In this document: positions 10,863-16,486 of the stretch, one piece after another | Layout of the letters: each line of letters starts with the position of its first letter | How positions within the stretch are numbered: the first letter of the stretch is position 1 | DNA from: Candidatus Tepidiaquacella proteinivora | GTDB taxonomy: Bacteria > Bacteroidota > Ignavibacteria > Tepidaquicellales > Tepidaquicellaceae | Length of the DNA: 64,000 nt | Assembly (NCBI GenBank): GCA_013348845.1 | Contig: CP054675.1 | Location: 558,001-622,000, forward strand | Direction of reading: 5' to 3' | Notes under the pieces: model-generated | The model's input: only the letters and a program-made list of their open reading frames with translations | The model's database searches: none | Told to the model about the DNA's origin: nothing | Made by a program: the position numbers and the translations under genes

Positions 10863-10954
10863 GGAAGGGTGGGTGAGTGGCTGAAACCAACGGTTTGCTA
10901 AACCGTCCTACGGATAAACCCGTAGCGCGAGTTCGAATCTCGCCCCTTCCGCCA
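10863..10954 (+). tRNA. tRNA-Ser(GCT)
   Basis: The acceptor stem GGAAGGG pairs with CCCTTCC, followed by discriminator G and an encoded CCA at 10952-10954. The anticodon arm ACGGT-TTGCTAA-ACCGT places GCT in the anticodon. A long variable arm (CTACGG...CCGTAG) and a GCGAG-TTCGAAT-CTCGC T-arm complete a class II serine tRNA. Its 3' end borders the decayed recombinase, so it is the likely attachment site of the island. Confidence 0.96.
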
Positions 10955-10974: not shown

Positions 10975-12469
10975 ACTGATTGTTGCCTCGCCATCGTTTC
11001 GTTAAGGCTCGGCAGTAATGAGAATTTTATATGGATTTTTGAAATCCAAAAAAATTTTACATAATCAAACCAAAGTTCGAACCAATCTTTTTAAGAAAAT
11101 CCAAAACCCTTCACGGGATTTTCTTGCAAAGCGATAATTTGGCTTTGTTTCAAGGTATTTATGAATCGGGCGGCGAGTTCGAACCGATTATTGCATTTTT
11201 CCTCAAAAACCGTTAAAATGTTCTCAAGAGTTGTTTTTGATTGACGGGTTTATTCTTTGCTTCTCGGTATTCGTCTAAAAACAAAACATTTTAATATTAG
11301 CATTAATAAGTTTTTCCAGTTTTTCATTGATTTCCAAAATTTCCTTATTTATCTTTTGAGGAAAAAAGTGAGATGATTGAATTTTCTTTTTTCTCTTTTT
11401 CCAATTCGTTTAACATTTTATCAACCCAATCATCAGGCAAAGAAACTTTTTGTATTGCTTCGTTAATTTGAGATGAAATTTTTTCTTCCTGTGTAAAAAC
11501 ATTTGCTAACATTTTCGATTAGGATTTTTCTTGGTGCAATAGTAGCTAGTGTATTGTTTTCCGCTCTTTTCATCTTTTCTGTCAGCCTAGATTGTATAGC
11601 CACATTCGCCGCATTTAAATCACTACCGATAAAGAAAAAATTTCATTTTGTCTGCTTTTTGCGGTTTGCTCCTTTGCTTTATCACTTCTTGCACTCGGTC
11701 AAAAAGTTTTTGTAATAATCGGTTTGTGCTTTCCTTCAAAGTATTCTCCTTTATAACTTATCAATCCATAGTAAAAAGAATTTTGTAAAAGATACTGATA
11801 ATTAGAAACGGAAAGCATTTTGTATCGCAGATCTCGTAATCCATGCTCATTGATAATTTTTCGAATTCCTTTGAAGGTATATTTTCCGGTGGCATAAAGC
11901 ATAAATGCTTTTTTGATGAGTGGGGCTTTTTCTTTAGGAACATAAAACTTTTTCGTTGCCTTATTATTGAGATAACCAAGTTGCGCAATTTGAGGCCATA
12001 AACCTTTTTTTAACTTTTGTCTGTACCCCTCTCTTAATATTTTCCGAAAGATTATCAATATAATATTTTGACTACCCAAAGGTGATTGAAAGCATAAATT
12101 TTCCTTGCATTGTCGGATCAAACCAAAAGGTCGGAAATTTTAGCTCTTAGATAACTTTAGTATTCACAAGATAAATGATTTGACCGCCGTCAATGCTGTT
12201 TCTCGCTAATCTATGAAGGTGCAACGCTAAAATTCCCTTGGCTTCGCCCGACTCAATTCATTTCAACATCTCGGCGAATACCGGTCGTCCAGGTTTCTTA
12301 GCAGTTTGTTTTTCGATAAGAATATCAACCACTTCCAGAATTTCTTTTTTCGACAATTATTTAAGCTCGGCGATTTGGTCATGATAATACGCACTTGTCT
12401 ATATTCACTATCAGTTGATTTATGGGTTTATATAAAAAACTTTCGGGTTTGATTGTTTTCTTGTGTCAT
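10975..12469 (-). pseudogene. Decayed large serine recombinase
   Basis: Reading the minus strand across all three frames rebuilds one large serine recombinase of about 500 residues. It starts MTQENNQT at 12469, then KSTDSEYRQ (resolvase active-site region) and EKQTAKKPGRPVFAEML. Next come LHRLARNSIDGGQIIYLV and FPTFWFDPTMQGKFMLSI, then the recombinase domain YATGKYTFKGIRKIINEHG with SFYYGLISYKGEYFEGKH. FKCGECGYTI (zinc ribbon) and a C-terminal tail reaching about 10975 finish it. At least four in-frame stops and several frameshifts separate the pieces, so it cannot be active. The longest intact piece is 11699-12121. The 3' end sits about 20 bases from the tRNA-Ser 3' end. Confidence 0.88.
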
Positions 12470-12716
12470 ATTATTTTTGTTATTAGGCAGTCAAGATATT
12501 TAAAATTATTACTTTGTCTTTCGTCAAAGGATAAAAAATGATTGTTTAATAAATTTTTCAAATTTATATTCGCCTTCGGAAAACAAAACTTTCGTTTGAG
12601 CGAGAAAAAATTGTTTATGGATTTTAAAAAACCGTATAAAATTATCGTTTCTTCCGAACCCGAAGGTAGTGAGGGTGTGGCAACACCCTTCAAAAACGCT
12701 GAAATTGTAAATTGGC
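12470..12716. other. Non-coding spacer between recombinase remnant and cassette
   Basis: No supportable gene. Short open frames exist on both strands but overlap each other and match nothing. A small hairpin, GGGTGT-GGCA-ACACCC, lies at 12673-12688. Base composition is noticeably richer in G+C than the surrounding host DNA. Confidence 0.5.
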
Positions 12717-13004
12717 GTTACCTTCTGGATAAAATCCGAACTTTTTTGGCGAAAATCCTGTCACCATTTTTTAATTTTCGCCAGCAGTGCTACGATACAG
12801 CGTAGCGTTTCCGAAAAGTTGGCGCTTACTTTGACTGCCAAAGCCAACAAAAATTTTTATTATTATTATGAAGAGCAACGATTTTTTACTTAAAAATGAT
12901 TTAATTTTTTGGAGGCATTGGCATCCAGTCTTTTTCTAAAAGGACTGGGTTTTTCGGCCCCCAAAAAAACACAAATCCTGCTTATGTAGGATAATAAACG
13001 GAGC
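12717..13004 (+). repeat. Left long inverted repeat of the cassette
   Basis: This aligns along its whole length with the reverse complement of 16206-16486. Shared blocks in the same order include CGAACTTTTTTG, CGAAAATCCTG, TTTCCGAAAAGTTGG, ACTTAAAAATGATTTAATTT, CCAGTCTTTTTCTAAAAGG and TCCTGCTTATG. Divergence is mostly substitutions and small indels. It contains its own hairpin at 12925-12948 followed by GTTTTTC. Confidence 0.85.
12925..12955 (+). terminator. Terminator-like hairpin in the left repeat, pointing into the cassette
   Basis: CCAGTC...GACTGG arms with a TTTT/AAAA extension form a stem, followed on the plus strand by a short T run (GTTTTTC). As a terminator it would stop transcription arriving from the left before it enters the cassette. 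The equivalent hairpin in the right repeat points the opposite way. Confidence 0.45.
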
Positions 13005-13019
13005 GTAGTTAAACTTTAC

Positions 13020-13048
13020 TTGATTTTTATTTAAAAATTTCATATATT
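13020..13048 (+). promoter_or_regulatory. Putative sigma70-type promoter of the defence operon
   Basis: TTGATT at 13020-13025, a 17-base spacer and TATATT at 13043-13048 lie 54 bases upstream of the regulator start. This is close to TTGACA-N17-TATAAT. It differs from the Bacteroidota-type promoter (TTG, then TAnnTTTG) expected for host genes. AT-rich DNA gives chance matches, so this is a prediction only. Confidence 0.45.
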
Positions 13049-13072
13049 AATATATTATTAAAATTGTTGCTA

Positions 13073-13099
13073 TATACTAAGTATAGTAAAATTTTACTA
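13073..13099. promoter_or_regulatory. Double palindromic operator (C-box-like) before the XRE regulator
   Basis: Two palindromes overlap by two bases just before the regulator ATG at 13102. TATACTAAGTATA (13073-13085) is perfect around its central A, and TAGTAAAATTTTACTA (13084-13099) is a perfect 16-mer. Paired operators immediately upstream of a controller gene are the known layout for restriction-modification C proteins, which activate and then repress their own operon. The binding assignment is inferred from position. Confidence 0.6.
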
Positions 13100-13101
13100 C
13101 G

Positions 13102-13314
13102 ATGTCAAAGAAACTTTCAATAATCGCCCAGAATATCAAAAAGTACCGAGAGAAAAATGGTATTTCCCAAGACAAGTTGTCAAAACTTGCTGGTATTACT
13201 TTGAATACAATTACAAAAATTGAATCAGGGGCAACACCTGATCCTAGAATTGAAACTGTTAGAAAGATTGCTGACGCTTTAGGTATAAGCGTTGACGATT
13301 TGTTAAAAAGATAA
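13102..13314 (+). CDS. XRE-family regulator, likely restriction-modification controller (C) protein
   Basis: This 70-residue protein is almost entirely one helix-turn-helix domain: IAQNIKKYREKNGISQDKLS, then KLAGITLNTITKIESGATPDP and TVRKIADALGISVDDLLKR. The length and fold equal those of C proteins, small dimeric activator/repressors that delay endonuclease expression until methylation is complete. The two palindromes directly before its ATG and the methyltransferase starting 4 bases after its stop support that role. The opposite-strand frame over the same bases is a shadow. No Shine-Dalgarno sequence is present. Confidence 0.88.
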   Translation: MSKKLSIIAQNIKKYREKNGISQDKLSKLAGITLNTITKIESGATPDPRIETVRKIADALGISVDDLLKR

Positions 13315-13318
13315 GAAT

Positions 13319-14611
13319 ATGACACTTCAAAACAATAAAAATTTTAAGAAAAAAAGAATGATTTATAGAGATCAAGATATTAATACTTCTTGGGCATATA
13401 AAACAAATGATAGCCTTAAAAAAGGTAACCTTATTCTTTTAGATAATGTTCAGTTTATCTATGAATTGGCTCTTGCGCAGCTGGAACTTCAATCTTTAAA
13501 TATTAATTTTCAAGTCACAAATGGTTTAAGGGAGTTTAAGCTTTTAACTACAAAGAATTTAGATAAACTAGCAAGAAGAACAGCTTACTTTAAAATAGTT
13601 GACGGTAAATTAACTGACTATTTCCATATCATCCAAAAAAATATTACGCGTTCTGTAAATCAATATTTAACTCACTGGATTTATCCGTATAAAGGGAAGT
13701 TTCATCCTCAGATGATAAGGGCTTTTTTGAATATTATTGGTTTAAAAGAAGGTGATAAGGTTTTAGATCCCTTTATTGGTAGTGGAACTACAGCTTTAGA
13801 GGCAAAGTTGCTGGGGATTGATTGTATCGGTATAGATATCTCGCCCTTATGTGTCCTTCAAAGTAAGGTCAAAACAGAAAGCATTGAAGTCATTAATGAA
13901 ATTGAAGAAATTAAAGATAGTATTTTAAACAAGGCAAAACCTGGACTTTTTAATCAAGAAGATAAGCCATTTTTAGAAACAATTAACTCTATACTAGATG
14001 AGAAGGTTAAAAACTTTTATAAAATGGTTTATCTAGTGGCAGTAAGTGATAATGCTCGGAGGGGAAGAAATTTTGATCAATCTTTTTATAAAAATTTGGA
14101 ATTGATGATTAAATCGGTTAGAGATTTTAGAGATATTGCCGAACAATTGAATTTAAAATTGGGGAAAACAGAAATTATGTTAGAGGATTCTCGAAATTTA
14201 CCTCAAGACGATGAGAGTATTGAAGGGATAATAACATCACCACCTTATTCGATTGCTTTGGATTATGTTTCAAATGATGCTCATGCTCTAAAAGTATTAG
14301 GATATAAGTTGTCAGAAATTAGAGAAGAATTTGTCGGAGTAAGGGGACGTGGCCCAGAAAGAATTAATTTATATAATCAGGACATGAAAAAGAGTTATGA
14401 AGAAATGTATCGGGTACTTAAACCAAAAGGGTTTGCTGCCATCGTTATTGGAAATGCTACTTACATGCGCGAAGAGGTTAAAACCGTTGAATTTACGATT
14501 GATTATTGTCAAAATGTAGGTTTTAGATTGGTCAAAAATATAGATAAAATAATTTTTGGTCTTTATAATGTGATGCAAAAAGAAAATGTTTTAATATTTC
14601 AAAAACCATAA
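13319..14611 (+). CDS. DNA methyltransferase (N4-cytosine/N6-adenine type)
   Basis: This 430-residue protein has the AdoMet-binding motif DPFIGSGTTALEAKLLG near residue 148, with an acidic motif II in IDCIGIDISP. The catalytic SPPY motif (GIITSPPYSIALDYV) is near residue 305. SPPY is typical of exocyclic-amino methyltransferases. Motif I precedes motif IV, unlike the common beta-class order (IV before I). The N-terminal ~130 residues, including HWIYPYKGKFHPQMIRAF, probably hold the target-recognition part. It lies 4 bases after the regulator and 6 before the endonuclease, as in a type II system. Recognition sequence is unknown. Confidence 0.88.
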   Translation: MTLQNNKNFKKKRMIYRDQDINTSWAYKTNDSLKKGNLILLDNVQFIYELALAQLELQSLNINFQVTNGLREFKLLTTKNLDKLARRTAYFKIVDGKLTDYFHIIQKNITRSVNQYLTHWIYPYKGKFHPQMIRAFLNIIGLKEGDKVLDPFIGSGTTALEAKLLGIDCIGIDISPLCVLQSKVKTESIEVINEIEEIKDSILNKAKPGLFNQEDKPFLETINSILDEKVKNFYKMVYLVAVSDNARRGRNFDQSFYKNLELMIKSVRDFRDIAEQLNLKLGKTEIMLEDSRNLPQDDESIEGIITSPPYSIALDYVSNDAHALKVLGYKLSEIREEFVGVRGRGPERINLYNQDMKKSYEEMYRVLKPKGFAAIVIGNATYMREEVKTVEFTIDYCQNVGFRLVKNIDKIIFGLYNVMQKENVLIFQKP

Positions 14612-14617
14612 ATAAAT

Positions 14618-15292
14618 ATGAGTAATGAACAAGAAAAATACATAAAAGAATTAGAGGAAACAATTTCCCAGTTCTTAAAACCATTAAAGAACATTCCGTT
14701 TAAAATTGCTATCAAAGCAATATCTGGTTGTAAAGTAATACCTTTTAATAAAAATAATCCGGACGATCAGCAGTTGTTAAAAGATTTAATTGAAGCAACA
14801 AAAATAGCTGCTAGGAATGCCAATCAGAAAGGGATATTTACAAGAAGAGAGAATGAAGTAGGAAATCATATCGAACCTTTTATGATTGAAGCTTTAAATC
14901 AAATCGGACTTGAAGCAGATAGGCCTGAAACAAAAGAAGGGAAAAAAAAAGCGATTGGTTATCCTGATATCTTCGTTTGGGATAGAAAAGGAAGACCAAA
15001 CTATATTGAGTGTAAAACCTATAATGAAAGAAATTACCAGACCACACAGAGATCATTTTATTTTTCCCCTGCAGAAAGACCGACAGATTTTAAGGTCATT
15101 TATGATGCAAGACATTTGATAATCAGTTTCAAAATTGAAAACGCAGAACGAGAAGGAGAAAGGGCTTTTGTTCCTGTATACTATAAAATCTTTAGTACAG
15201 ATAATCTTATTGGACAAATCAAACATGAGTTTAACTCTTCAAACAAACAAATGTATACAACTCAAGCTTTATTAGCCGAAGGCGATGTTTGA
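14618..15292 (+). CDS. Type II restriction endonuclease, PD-(D/E)xK fold
   Basis: This 224-residue protein has a readable nuclease core: YPDIFVWDRKGRPNYIECKTY gives the PD (D117) and ExK (E131, K133) catalytic triad. An upstream acidic helix, ENEVGNHIEPFMIEAL (E80 onwards), fits the first conserved glutamate of the fold. The protein directly follows the methyltransferase and is the obvious cognate cutter. No specific restriction-enzyme family was recognised, so recognition site and cut type remain unknown. The stop overlaps the start of the next gene by 8 bases, which suggests coupling to the downstream TIR module. Confidence 0.8.
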   Translation: MSNEQEKYIKELEETISQFLKPLKNIPFKIAIKAISGCKVIPFNKNNPDDQQLLKDLIEATKIAARNANQKGIFTRRENEVGNHIEPFMIEALNQIGLEADRPETKEGKKKAIGYPDIFVWDRKGRPNYIECKTYNERNYQTTQRSFYFSPAERPTDFKVIYDARHLIISFKIENAEREGERAFVPVYYKIFSTDNLIGQIKHEFNSSNKQMYTTQALLAEGDV

Positions 15293-15704
15293 TACTAAAT
15301 ATAGTATGGAAAATAAACATAAACATTTAGAATTTATCCAAGCAATAATTAATAGAATGGCAAACCATTCCTTTATAATGAAGGGTTGGGCTATTACATT
15401 GGTTGTTGCTTTATTTGTTTTAGTCCCAAAGCATCCTGATAAGAAGTGTATTGTGATTGCCTTTTTACCTGTTGTAGTTTTTTGGATTTTAGATGGGTAT
15501 TTCTTATCTAGAGAAAGAAAGTTTCGGTACCTATATGATGAAGTAAGAAAGAAAAATGATAAGGAAATTGACTTTTCGATGGATGTATCTAATTTTAAGG
15601 AGTGGAAAATTAATTGGTTTTGTTCAGTTTTTTCTAAGACACTTTTATTTTTTTATATTTCTCTGGTCGGCGCTATGCTAATCGTGTATTATTTAATAAA
15701 ATAA
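15285..15704 (+). CDS. Small multi-TM protein, putative membrane effector partner of the TIR-like protein
   Basis: This 139-residue protein (an alternative ATG at 15306 would remove 7 residues) has hydrophobic helices near residues 32-49, 54-72 and 112-137. The segments RMANHSFIMKGWAITLV and FWILDGYFLSRERKFRYLY look strongly conserved. From memory, this type of small membrane protein recurs beside DUF1863 TIR-like genes and resembles SLATT/2TM effectors, but no Pfam name can be assigned safely. Its place between a nuclease and a TIR-like sensor, with an 8-base overlap upstream and 6 bases downstream, suggests a membrane-disrupting or signalling role in phage defence. That function is inference. 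Confidence 0.75.
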   Translation: MFDTKYSMENKHKHLEFIQAIINRMANHSFIMKGWAITLVVALFVLVPKHPDKKCIVIAFLPVVVFWILDGYFLSRERKFRYLYDEVRKKNDKEIDFSMDVSNFKEWKINWFCSVFSKTLLFFYISLVGAMLIVYYLIK

Positions 15705-15710
15705 AATCAT

Positions 15711-16202
15711 ATGGCAAGACGAGTATTTTTCAGTTTTCATTACGAAAGAGATATCTGGCGGGCAAGTCAGATTAGAAATAGCTGGGTAACAAAACCAAAT
15801 AGAGAATCAGCTGGTTTTTGGGATTCTGCATCTTGGGAAGCAGCGAAGAAAATAGGTGAGGACGCAATAGAAAGATGGATTAATAATCAGTTACATGGTA
15901 CATCGGTGACAGTAGTGTTGATTGGTACTGAGACAAGCGAAAGGAAATATGTTAAATACGAAATTAAGAGAAGCTATGAAATTGGAAATGGCATGCTGGG
16001 GATTTATATCCATAATATGAAGGATCAATTTGGTAGAACAGATGTAAAAGGCAAAAATCCATTCGATAATTGGTATTTAAACAGAAATGGACATATAATT
16101 TATTTTTCATCTCTTTACCATACTTACGATTGGGTTTATGATAGAGGTTATAAAAATATAGGCGATTGGATAGAAAAAGCAGCAAGAGATGTTGGAAGAT
16201 AA
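15711..16202 (+). CDS. TIR-like (DUF1863/MTH538) protein, ThsB-like
   Basis: This 163-residue protein matches the MTH538/DUF1863 TIR-like family along its length: ARRVFFSFHYERDIWRASQI at the start, then RNSWVT and GTSVTVVLIGTETSERKYVK, followed by YEIKRSYEIGNGMLGIYIHN. Proteins of this family include ThsB of the Thoeris anti-phage system, which makes a cyclic-ADP-ribose-type signal from NAD. E84 in VKYEIKRS is a candidate catalytic or structural glutamate, not confirmed. The gene ends 4 bases before the right inverted repeat, so it is the last cassette gene. No ThsA (SIR2-SLOG or macro) partner is present; the adjacent membrane protein may replace it. Confidence 0.88.
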   Translation: MARRVFFSFHYERDIWRASQIRNSWVTKPNRESAGFWDSASWEAAKKIGEDAIERWINNQLHGTSVTVVLIGTETSERKYVKYEIKRSYEIGNGMLGIYIHNMKDQFGRTDVKGKNPFDNWYLNRNGHIIYFSSLYHTYDWVYDRGYKNIGDWIEKAARDVGR

Positions 16203-16205
16203 CTC

Positions 16206-16486
16206 TGCCCTATTCATTACCCTGCATAAGCAGGACTTGGGCCGTGAGGCGTTTCTGAAAACCCCAGTCCTTTTAGAAAAAGACTGGGTACCAAAGCTGC
16301 CAAAAATTAAATCATTTTTAAGTGAAAAAAATTCGTCGCTCGTCCTAATAAAATTTTGCCGGCTTTGTCAGTTGGCATCAGCCAACTTTTCGGAAACTTT
16401 CGGCTGGATTGTTGCTATGTTGACGACAATTAAAAATTGTTGTCAGGATTTTCGTCAAAAAAGTTCGTATTTTGTCCAAATAGTAC
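16206..16486 (-). repeat. Right long inverted repeat of the cassette
   Basis: This is the reverse complement of the 12717-13004 repeat, with the conserved blocks listed there in mirror order. It contains CCCAGTCC...GACTGGG (16263-16288), the hairpin CCTGC-ATAA-GCAGG (16221-16234) and GTTGGC-ATCA-GCCAAC near 16371-16386. The 117-residue frame running through it is not a supportable gene because it mostly translates the repeat. Confidence 0.85.
16258..16288 (-). terminator. Terminator-like hairpin in the right repeat, pointing into the cassette
   Basis: Read on the minus strand, the CCCAGTC/GACTGGG stem is followed by GTTTTC. If active, it stops leftward transcription entering from host DNA. 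On the plus strand it has no T run after it, so it is not an obvious terminator for the TIR-like gene. Confidence 0.35.

What the first reader, a model, noticed from the sequence alone, without database searches (positions are those of the whole stretch)
13073..13099. Two overlapping palindromes in front of the cassette regulator
TATACTAAGTATA and TAGTAAAATTTTACTA are both perfect, overlap by two bases and end 2 bases before the ATG. The arrangement fits a C-protein double operator but could place repressor directly over the start codon region. Since all five genes are in one operon, the same switch may control the TIR module as well, which would be a new combination.
Basis: partly seen in the sequence, partly recalled or inferred. 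Interest (0 to 1): 0.55.

Follow-up and report, generated by a model that had tools for sequence, protein, structure and literature searches.

The report
Start-codon operator of a defence cassette
The palindrome just in front of a small regulator gene is very probably that regulator's own DNA binding site, shared with related defence cassettes in other bacteria and sitting inside a predicted promoter that points the opposite way, so the regulator probably tunes both itself and a linked set of anti-virus genes.

Summary
Relatives show they differ in value. The right one (core AGTAAWNNWTTACT, "D2") recurs within 20 nt of the start codon in 9 of 64 homologous regulator starts, all close relatives, against 1 of 291 control starts scanned over 45 nt. 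The left one is not conserved as a palindrome. D2 lies in the 17-bp spacer of a predicted leftward promoter (TTGACA-17-TATACT, 11/12) whose -35 is inside the regulator's first codons. Such opposing promoters are enriched in the family: 21 of 36 starts (null mean 5.1, maximum 12) and 13 of 28 fresh starts (null mean 3.1, maximum 10). Best model: a C.Kpn2I-like autoregulator that blocks an opposing promoter and may obstruct its own rightward operon. The five genes are tightly packed. A second operator-like site (14 of 15 bases) fills the gap before the TM gene, only in this locus; its role is unproven. The gene combination is not unique: the same order recurs with a different methylase and putative nuclease. 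A real operator very likely; new variant of a known kind; no binding data.

The parts
13007..13020 (+). D2-like site AGTTAAACTTTACT (11/12), abutting the -35 of the predicted rightward promoter
   Evidence: not found at 11/12 upstream in the other 20 of 21 close relatives, so window-specific and uncertain
13020..13048 (+). predicted rightward promoter P(right) of the C operon, TTGATT-17-TATATT (9/12)
   Evidence: by eye aligns with TTGACT/TTGCTA-17-TATACT and TTGACT-17-TATCCT of L029, L028, L054. The automatic scan picked a different 9/12 pair in the window (TTAAAA-16-TATTAT)
13084..13099 (.). right palindrome TAGTAAAATTTTACTA, contains conserved operator core D2 (AGTAAWNNWTTACT, 13085-13098)
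13080..13108 (-). predicted leftward promoter P(left): -35 TTGACA 13108-13103 (inside C codons), 17-bp spacer holding D2, -10 TATACT 13085-13080
13102..13314 (+). C-like regulator, 70 aa HTH_3/XRE protein
13319..14611 (+). N6/N4 DNA methyltransferase (type II-like)
   Evidence: PF01555 7.9e-19; PADLOC MTase_II 2.8e-35
14618..15292 (+). type II restriction endonuclease
   Evidence: PADLOC REase_II PDLC03511 1.5e-43
15292..15307 (.). second operator-like palindrome ATACTAAATATAGTAT between R stop and TM start codon; 14 of 15 bases shared with 13074-13088
15306..15704 (+). small membrane protein, PDC-M50A
   Evidence: PADLOC 1.5e-50; start supported by homologues
15711..16202 (+). TIR-like protein, ThsB_TIR / PDC-M50B
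   Evidence: PF08937 3.1e-25; PDC-M50B 3.4e-67
12726..13011 (+). left arm of imperfect inverted repeat flanking the cassette
   Evidence: 74.8% to 16200-16478
16200..16478 (-). right arm of the inverted repeat
11063..12449 (-). degraded large serine recombinase, divergent from the C gene (estimated extent)
   Evidence: tblastn pieces in more than one frame

Best explanation
The right palindrome (D2) is the operator of the 70-residue C-like protein. It lies in the leader of the rightward C-M-R-TM-TIR operon and also in the spacer between -35 and -10 of an opposing leftward promoter whose -35 is inside the first C codons. When the protein accumulates, a dimer on D2 shuts the leftward promoter and stands in the way of RNA polymerase coming from P(right), holding the protein and the operon at a set level. 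The TM/TIR pair shares this control through the common transcript, and possibly also through its own operator-like site at its start codon. Shown by computation: the sites, their conservation in relatives, the family-wide enrichment of the opposing promoter, the operon-like spacing. Inferred: binding, promoter activity, roadblock, repression of TM/TIR.
For: D2 at 11/12 or better within 20 nt of the start in 9 of 64 C starts, against 1 of 291 control starts over 45 nt. P(left) at 10/12 or better in 21 of 36 starts (11 at 11/12), 4 of 244 control gene starts, null with the coding part kept fixed mean 5.1, maximum 12 in 500. Fresh sample of 28 starts, prediction written beforehand: 13 at 10/12 or better, null mean 3.1, maximum 10; mean score 9.36 against 7.72, null maximum 8.32. 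Among the 21 closer relatives 8 reach 11/12 at 17-bp spacing and no other spacing from 12 to 25 gives more than 2. Where the protein starts MKS or MSSS instead of MSK the -35 shifts within the codons and stays 17 bp from the -10. Ten representatives below 60% identity: mean 9.70 against 7.97, null maximum 9.30. Predicted fold closest to SinR, CapH, C.BclI and C.AhdI. Direct precedent for a C protein that represses an opposing promoter whose -35 lies by the C start and blocks elongation: C.Kpn2I (PMC6237814; abstract and sections 18, 22, 27 read).
Against: No binding or transcript data. Canonical P(left) is absent or weak in close relatives L054, L026, L031 and L098. With ten representatives the count at 10/12 or better (4) is inside the null range (mean 1.3, maximum 5), and so is the dyad count. 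Distant relatives show a second peak at 23-bp spacing (9 of 43 at 11/12), which sigma-70 would not use. The promoter scan of the region as a whole is at chance level (21 against 20.8). The host may use a promoter type that this consensus does not cover (inference; the phylum was not told by the tools). In the fresh sample some loci come from genomes already used and four are nearly identical.
Confidence: 0.6

Rival explanations
1. Classical C-box double operator: two dimers on the two palindromes activate and then repress a rightward promoter with TATAGT (13083-13088) as -10, giving a nearly leaderless C transcript.
For: TATAGT precedes the start in many relatives; a TTAAAA-18-TATAGT hit, 9/12.
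Against: The left palindrome is not conserved; TATAGT has a poor -35; in the stretch from 40 before to 24 after the start only 1 of 36 loci has a rightward site of 10/12 or better, against 21 of 36 leftward. An upstream rightward promoter is enriched (mean 9.06 against 7.88, null maximum 8.42).
Confidence: 0.2
2. Element entry switch: the leftward promoter is there to express the neighbouring serine recombinase, and the C-like protein is the element's repressor, shutting off recombination once the cargo is established.
For: A divergent recombinase lies 95-670 bp left of the C start in 11 of 30 loci with enough flank, as close as 95-100 bp in L048 and L070; P(left) at 11/12 in 8 of 11 with and 3 of 19 without recombinase (Fisher 0.0045, not corrected for relatedness).
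Against: The association did not replicate: fresh sample 8 with and 16 without recombinase, Mann-Whitney p = 0.36. Many loci with P(left) have no recombinase; the window's recombinase is broken.
Confidence: 0.2
3. RNA-level control: the palindromes form hairpins in the leader that hide the start codon.
For: The D2 stretch alone folds better than most shuffles (z -3.4; 6 of 200 at least as good).
Against: Only -2.8 kcal/mol; the whole leader has z -1.55 and the TM site z -1.68. Perfect dyad without a loop and position in a promoter spacer fit DNA binding better.
Confidence: 0.07
4. The site before the TM gene is a chance resemblance with no role.
For: Found by eye after the fact. It matches the unconserved left part, not the conserved D2 core. 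The next-best cassettes have no such site (14 loci), nor do 19 other TM gene starts (best 10 of 15).
Against: 14 of 15 reached in 1 of 4000 random 40-nt start regions (about 0.001 allowing for four downstream genes); TACTAARTATAGTA occurs exactly twice in the 2.4-Mb genome, both in this cassette, though the pattern was written from these two sites.
Confidence: 0.45

Closest known systems
C.Kpn2I, controller protein acting as an elongation roadblock (PMC6237814; abstract and sections 18, 22, 27 read)
   Same: XRE-type C protein; binding region at the start of its own gene; strong opposing promoter with its -35 there; motif at or just upstream of the start
   Different: In Kpn2I the opposing promoter makes the methylase and the site lies mostly inside the reading frame; here the site ends 2 bp before the ATG, M is in the rightward operon and the leftward neighbour is a broken recombinase
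Classical C proteins (C.AhdI, C.Esp1396I, C.BclI)
   Same: Size and fold; small autoregulatory HTH protein ahead of restriction-modification genes
   Different: No GACT/AGTC C-box pair (C-box sequence recalled); C.AhdI, C.BclI and C.Esp1396I only as fold matches, no PDB sequence match to them at 1e-5
RptR, repressor of a type I RM operon with embedded DarTG2 (PMC12255303; abstract and discussion read)
   Same: Small regulator heading a restriction operon that carries a second defence module
   Different: RptR is not an HTH_3 protein as described there, binds TAGCTA direct repeats over the -10 box and was shown by experiment
Thoeris / PADLOC candidate PDC-M50
   Same: TIR protein matches ThsB and PDC-M50B, membrane protein matches PDC-M50A
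   Different: No ThsA with SIR2 or macro domain in the cassette by Pfam; 'PDC-M50' occurs in 0 papers of the library

Membership tests
Restriction-modification C proteins | Small HTH_3/XRE protein of C-protein fold | tested here: met
   PF01381 1.2e-17; PADLOC Control_protein 3.8e-10, behind HTH_VI 5.9e-12 and capH 4.1e-11; fold matches C.BclI, C.AhdI, C.Esp1396I
Restriction-modification C proteins | Encoded with and ahead of M and/or R | tested here: met
   12 C loci examined for the next gene: 9 methylase, 1 GmrSD, 1 HNH, 1 EamA
Restriction-modification C proteins | Symmetric operator upstream, conserved among relatives | tested here: met
   D2
Restriction-modification C proteins | DNA binding and autoregulation | not testable with these tools
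   needs experiment
C.Kpn2I-like roadblock regulators | Opposing strong promoter overlapping the C start, site in its core | tested here: met
   predicted only:
C.Kpn2I-like roadblock regulators | Bound protein stalls elongating polymerase | not testable with these tools
   needs in vitro transcription
Thoeris | ThsB TIR protein | tested here: met
   PF08937 3.1e-25; ThsB models 5.9e-68
Thoeris | ThsA effector with SIR2 or macro domain | tested here: not met
   only a weak DUF3278 match in the 132-aa partner; none in the other three proteins
PDC-M50 candidate system | PDC-M50A plus PDC-M50B side by side | tested here: met
   1.5e-50 and 3.4e-67, adjacent genes
RptR | TAGCTA repeats over the -10 | tested here: not met
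   no TAGCTA in the 13000-13110 sequence

The most novel reading that the evidence does not exclude
A family of interchangeable defence cassettes, found in candidate-phylum bacteria and in this host's class, carries one regulatory head: a C-like protein with a start-codon operator inside an opposing promoter. The opposing promoter serves entry into a new host (recombinase and interference with the operon while the protein is scarce), and the protein then flips transcription towards the cargo and caps it. In this locus the same protein has gained a second site at the start codon of a TIR/membrane module, adding module-specific restraint of a potentially suicidal defence.
Probability: 0.18. Interest if true: 0.72.

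Novelty: new variant of a known kind. Interest (0 to 1): 0.48.

Why it matters
How small regulators hold anti-phage genes safely in check is largely open. If right, one 70-residue protein and a 14-bp site control exchangeable defence cargoes of several restriction types and, here, a TIR module, through an opposing promoter built into the regulator's own start. The design is compact and portable, and every step can be tested with short DNA fragments in a laboratory strain.

Tried and rejected
Left palindrome as a conserved second operator: not borne out; L070 keeps 12 of its bases, L054, L026 and L098 do not (for L098). Link between P(left) strength and recombinase: seen, failed in the fresh sample. 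Internal second operators as a family habit: only the window has a 14-of-15 match among 14 loci (two starts there were off by 6 and 9 nt and were redone, no change). Upstream D2-like site as a conserved activator site: not conserved. RNA hairpin: weak. Recognition-helix to operator correspondence: looked at by eye only; L098 has a D2 operator with a different helix, so not claimed. Viral contigs: no relative of TM or R confirmed; C gave four weak loci, not used except L019, dropped for an unclear start. The core-repeat scan of viral contigs gave 12 stretches that I did not read. Plasmid search: 137 records with TM relatives, not followed up. Rows dropped: one search left out L023 (copy of L002), L019, L040, L042, L058 (unclear starts), L020-L022 (distant) and a second L039 hit; one locus without an ATG (L137) was dropped, and 2 of the 29 places without loci were not fetched.

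Paper searches: 8; no paper among the listings I saw describes this cassette, but only three papers were opened (PMC12255303, PMC6237814, and PMC5282649 abstract only).

Full report
Observation. Both palindromes are present and perfect: 13073-13085 and 13084-13099, sharing two bases, two bases before the ATG at 13102. The window holds six perfect even palindromes with arms of 8 or more. In random 100-nt sequences of local composition such a palindrome occurs in 2.9%, and with a neighbouring second one in 0.075%.

Genes. The 70-residue protein is an HTH_3/XRE regulator (PF01381 1.2e-17; PADLOC Control_protein 3.8e-10). AlphaFold (mean pLDDT 87) places it with SinR, CapH, C.BclI and C.AhdI. It is followed by an N6/N4 methylase, a type II endonuclease (PDLC03511 1.5e-43), a small membrane protein (PDC-M50A 1.5e-50) and a ThsB-like TIR protein (PDC-M50B 3.4e-67). 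Gaps are 4, 6, 13 and 6 nt. The TM start at 15306 is supported by homologues beginning with the same residues.

Relatives. C homologues were gathered from 332 candidate-phylum genomes (45 with a match), 149 genomes of the window's class (6 with a match) and smaller sets. The right palindrome recurs as AGTAAWNNWTTACT: window, L054, L025, L026, L027, L030, L055, L032 and L039 at 11 or 12 of 12 within 20 nt of the start, that is 9 of 64 C starts, against 1 of 291 control starts over 45 nt. L098 has a 12/12 copy 21 nt upstream. The centre varies (AT, AC, GT, CT, TA, AT) while the arms hold. More distant C genes lack it. The left palindrome is not kept as such.

Opposing promoter. The best promoter-like hit of the region (11/12) reads leftward: TTGACA at 13108-13103, 17 bp, TATACT at 13085-13080, with the -35 inside ATGTCAA and D2 in the spacer. 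The scan as a whole is at chance level (21 against 20.8), so I tested the family. Leftward sites of 10/12 or better: 21 of 36 C starts, 4 of 244 control starts; null with coding letters fixed mean 5.1, maximum 12. Rightward sites of that strength in the same stretch: 1 of 36. Five of the 21 (L054, L026, L034, L035, L049) are not at the usual place. I wrote the prediction down and tested 28 fresh starts: 13 at 10/12 or better, null mean 3.1, maximum 10; mean score 9.36 against 7.72. In the 21 closer relatives the 17-bp spacing stands out (8 at 11/12; no other spacing from 12 to 25 above 2), but in 43 more distant ones 23 bp gives 9 at 11/12 against 4 at 17 bp, so the claim is firm only for the closer group. 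Where the protein begins MKS or MSSS (L002, L055, L030) the -35 moves and the spacing stays 17.

Rightward promoter. An upstream promoter is also enriched (mean 9.06 against 7.88, null maximum 8.42). In the window I favour TTGATT-17-TATATT at 13020-13048 because it aligns by eye with L028, L029 and L054; the automatic choice was another 9/12 pair. If so, D2 lies downstream of that start, where a bound protein would hinder elongation, as shown for C.Kpn2I (PMC6237814, sections read). A further D2-like site abuts that -35 (13007-13020) but only in this locus.

TM site. ATACTAAATATAGTAT (15292-15307) fills the 13-nt gap between the R stop and the TM start and shares 14 of 15 bases with 13074-13088. 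One of 4000 random regions reached 14. TACTAARTATAGTA has exactly two matches in the 2.4-Mb genome, both here; at one mismatch it has 12 in all against 19 for the reversed control, so the background is ordinary. It resembles the unconserved left part, lacks D2 and has no promoter. None of 13 other C cassettes has such a copy and none of 19 other TM starts exceeds 10 of 15. I rate function at about even odds.

Combination. L089 has the same order with an unrelated methylase and an unassigned 221-residue protein in the R place; L090 has an XRE-like ORF (by eye), an unassigned protein, a methylase, TM and a ThsB protein; L094 has hsdM, TM, ThsB, hsdS and hsdR. So the TM/TIR pair joins restriction operons repeatedly. 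Among 12 C loci whose next gene was examined, 9 have a methylase of various types, one GmrSD, one HNH, one a transporter: the regulator heads exchangeable cargo.

Surroundings. The cassette is bounded by imperfect inverted repeats and a broken serine recombinase lies to the left. An association of P(left) with recombinase (8 of 11 against 3 of 19) failed to replicate (p = 0.36), so I do not rest the model on it.

Verdict. A genuine C-protein operator at a start codon, very probably; its place inside an opposing promoter makes it a C.Kpn2I-like variant. Binding, transcription and any separate control of the TIR module remain inference.

Noticed in passing
window 12726-13011 and 16200-16478; also L002, L070, L071, L073, L077, L090: Cassettes or their recombinases are bounded by inverted repeats (75-100% identical) in 8 of 16 sequences compared (L081 only around the recombinase).
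   Followed up: partly
window 12720-12765 and about 16443-16480; L002, L089, L081, L041, L049: A short element near TGGACAAAATCCGAACTTTTTTGACGAAAATCCTGA recurs at cassette ends across loci; possibly a recombination site. 12 viral-contig stretches hold part of it (not read).
   Followed up: partly
window 10981-11077 and 12587-12685; L073, L077, L081, L090: The end of the recombinase gene is repeated in inverted orientation on its other side, 99-100% identical in L073, L077 and L081.
   Followed up: no
window 10863-10951: A tRNA gene sits just left of the recombinase remnant, a possible integration landmark.
   Followed up: no
L094 54-6654: TM/ThsB pair inserted between hsdM and hsdS-hsdR of a type I operon.
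   Followed up: partly
L005 1460-2718: The endonuclease gene of this related locus is split by a roughly 1.2-kb insertion that looks like an insertion sequence.
   Followed up: no
L003, L005: Relatives of the methylase and endonuclease occur without a nearby C homologue.
   Followed up: no
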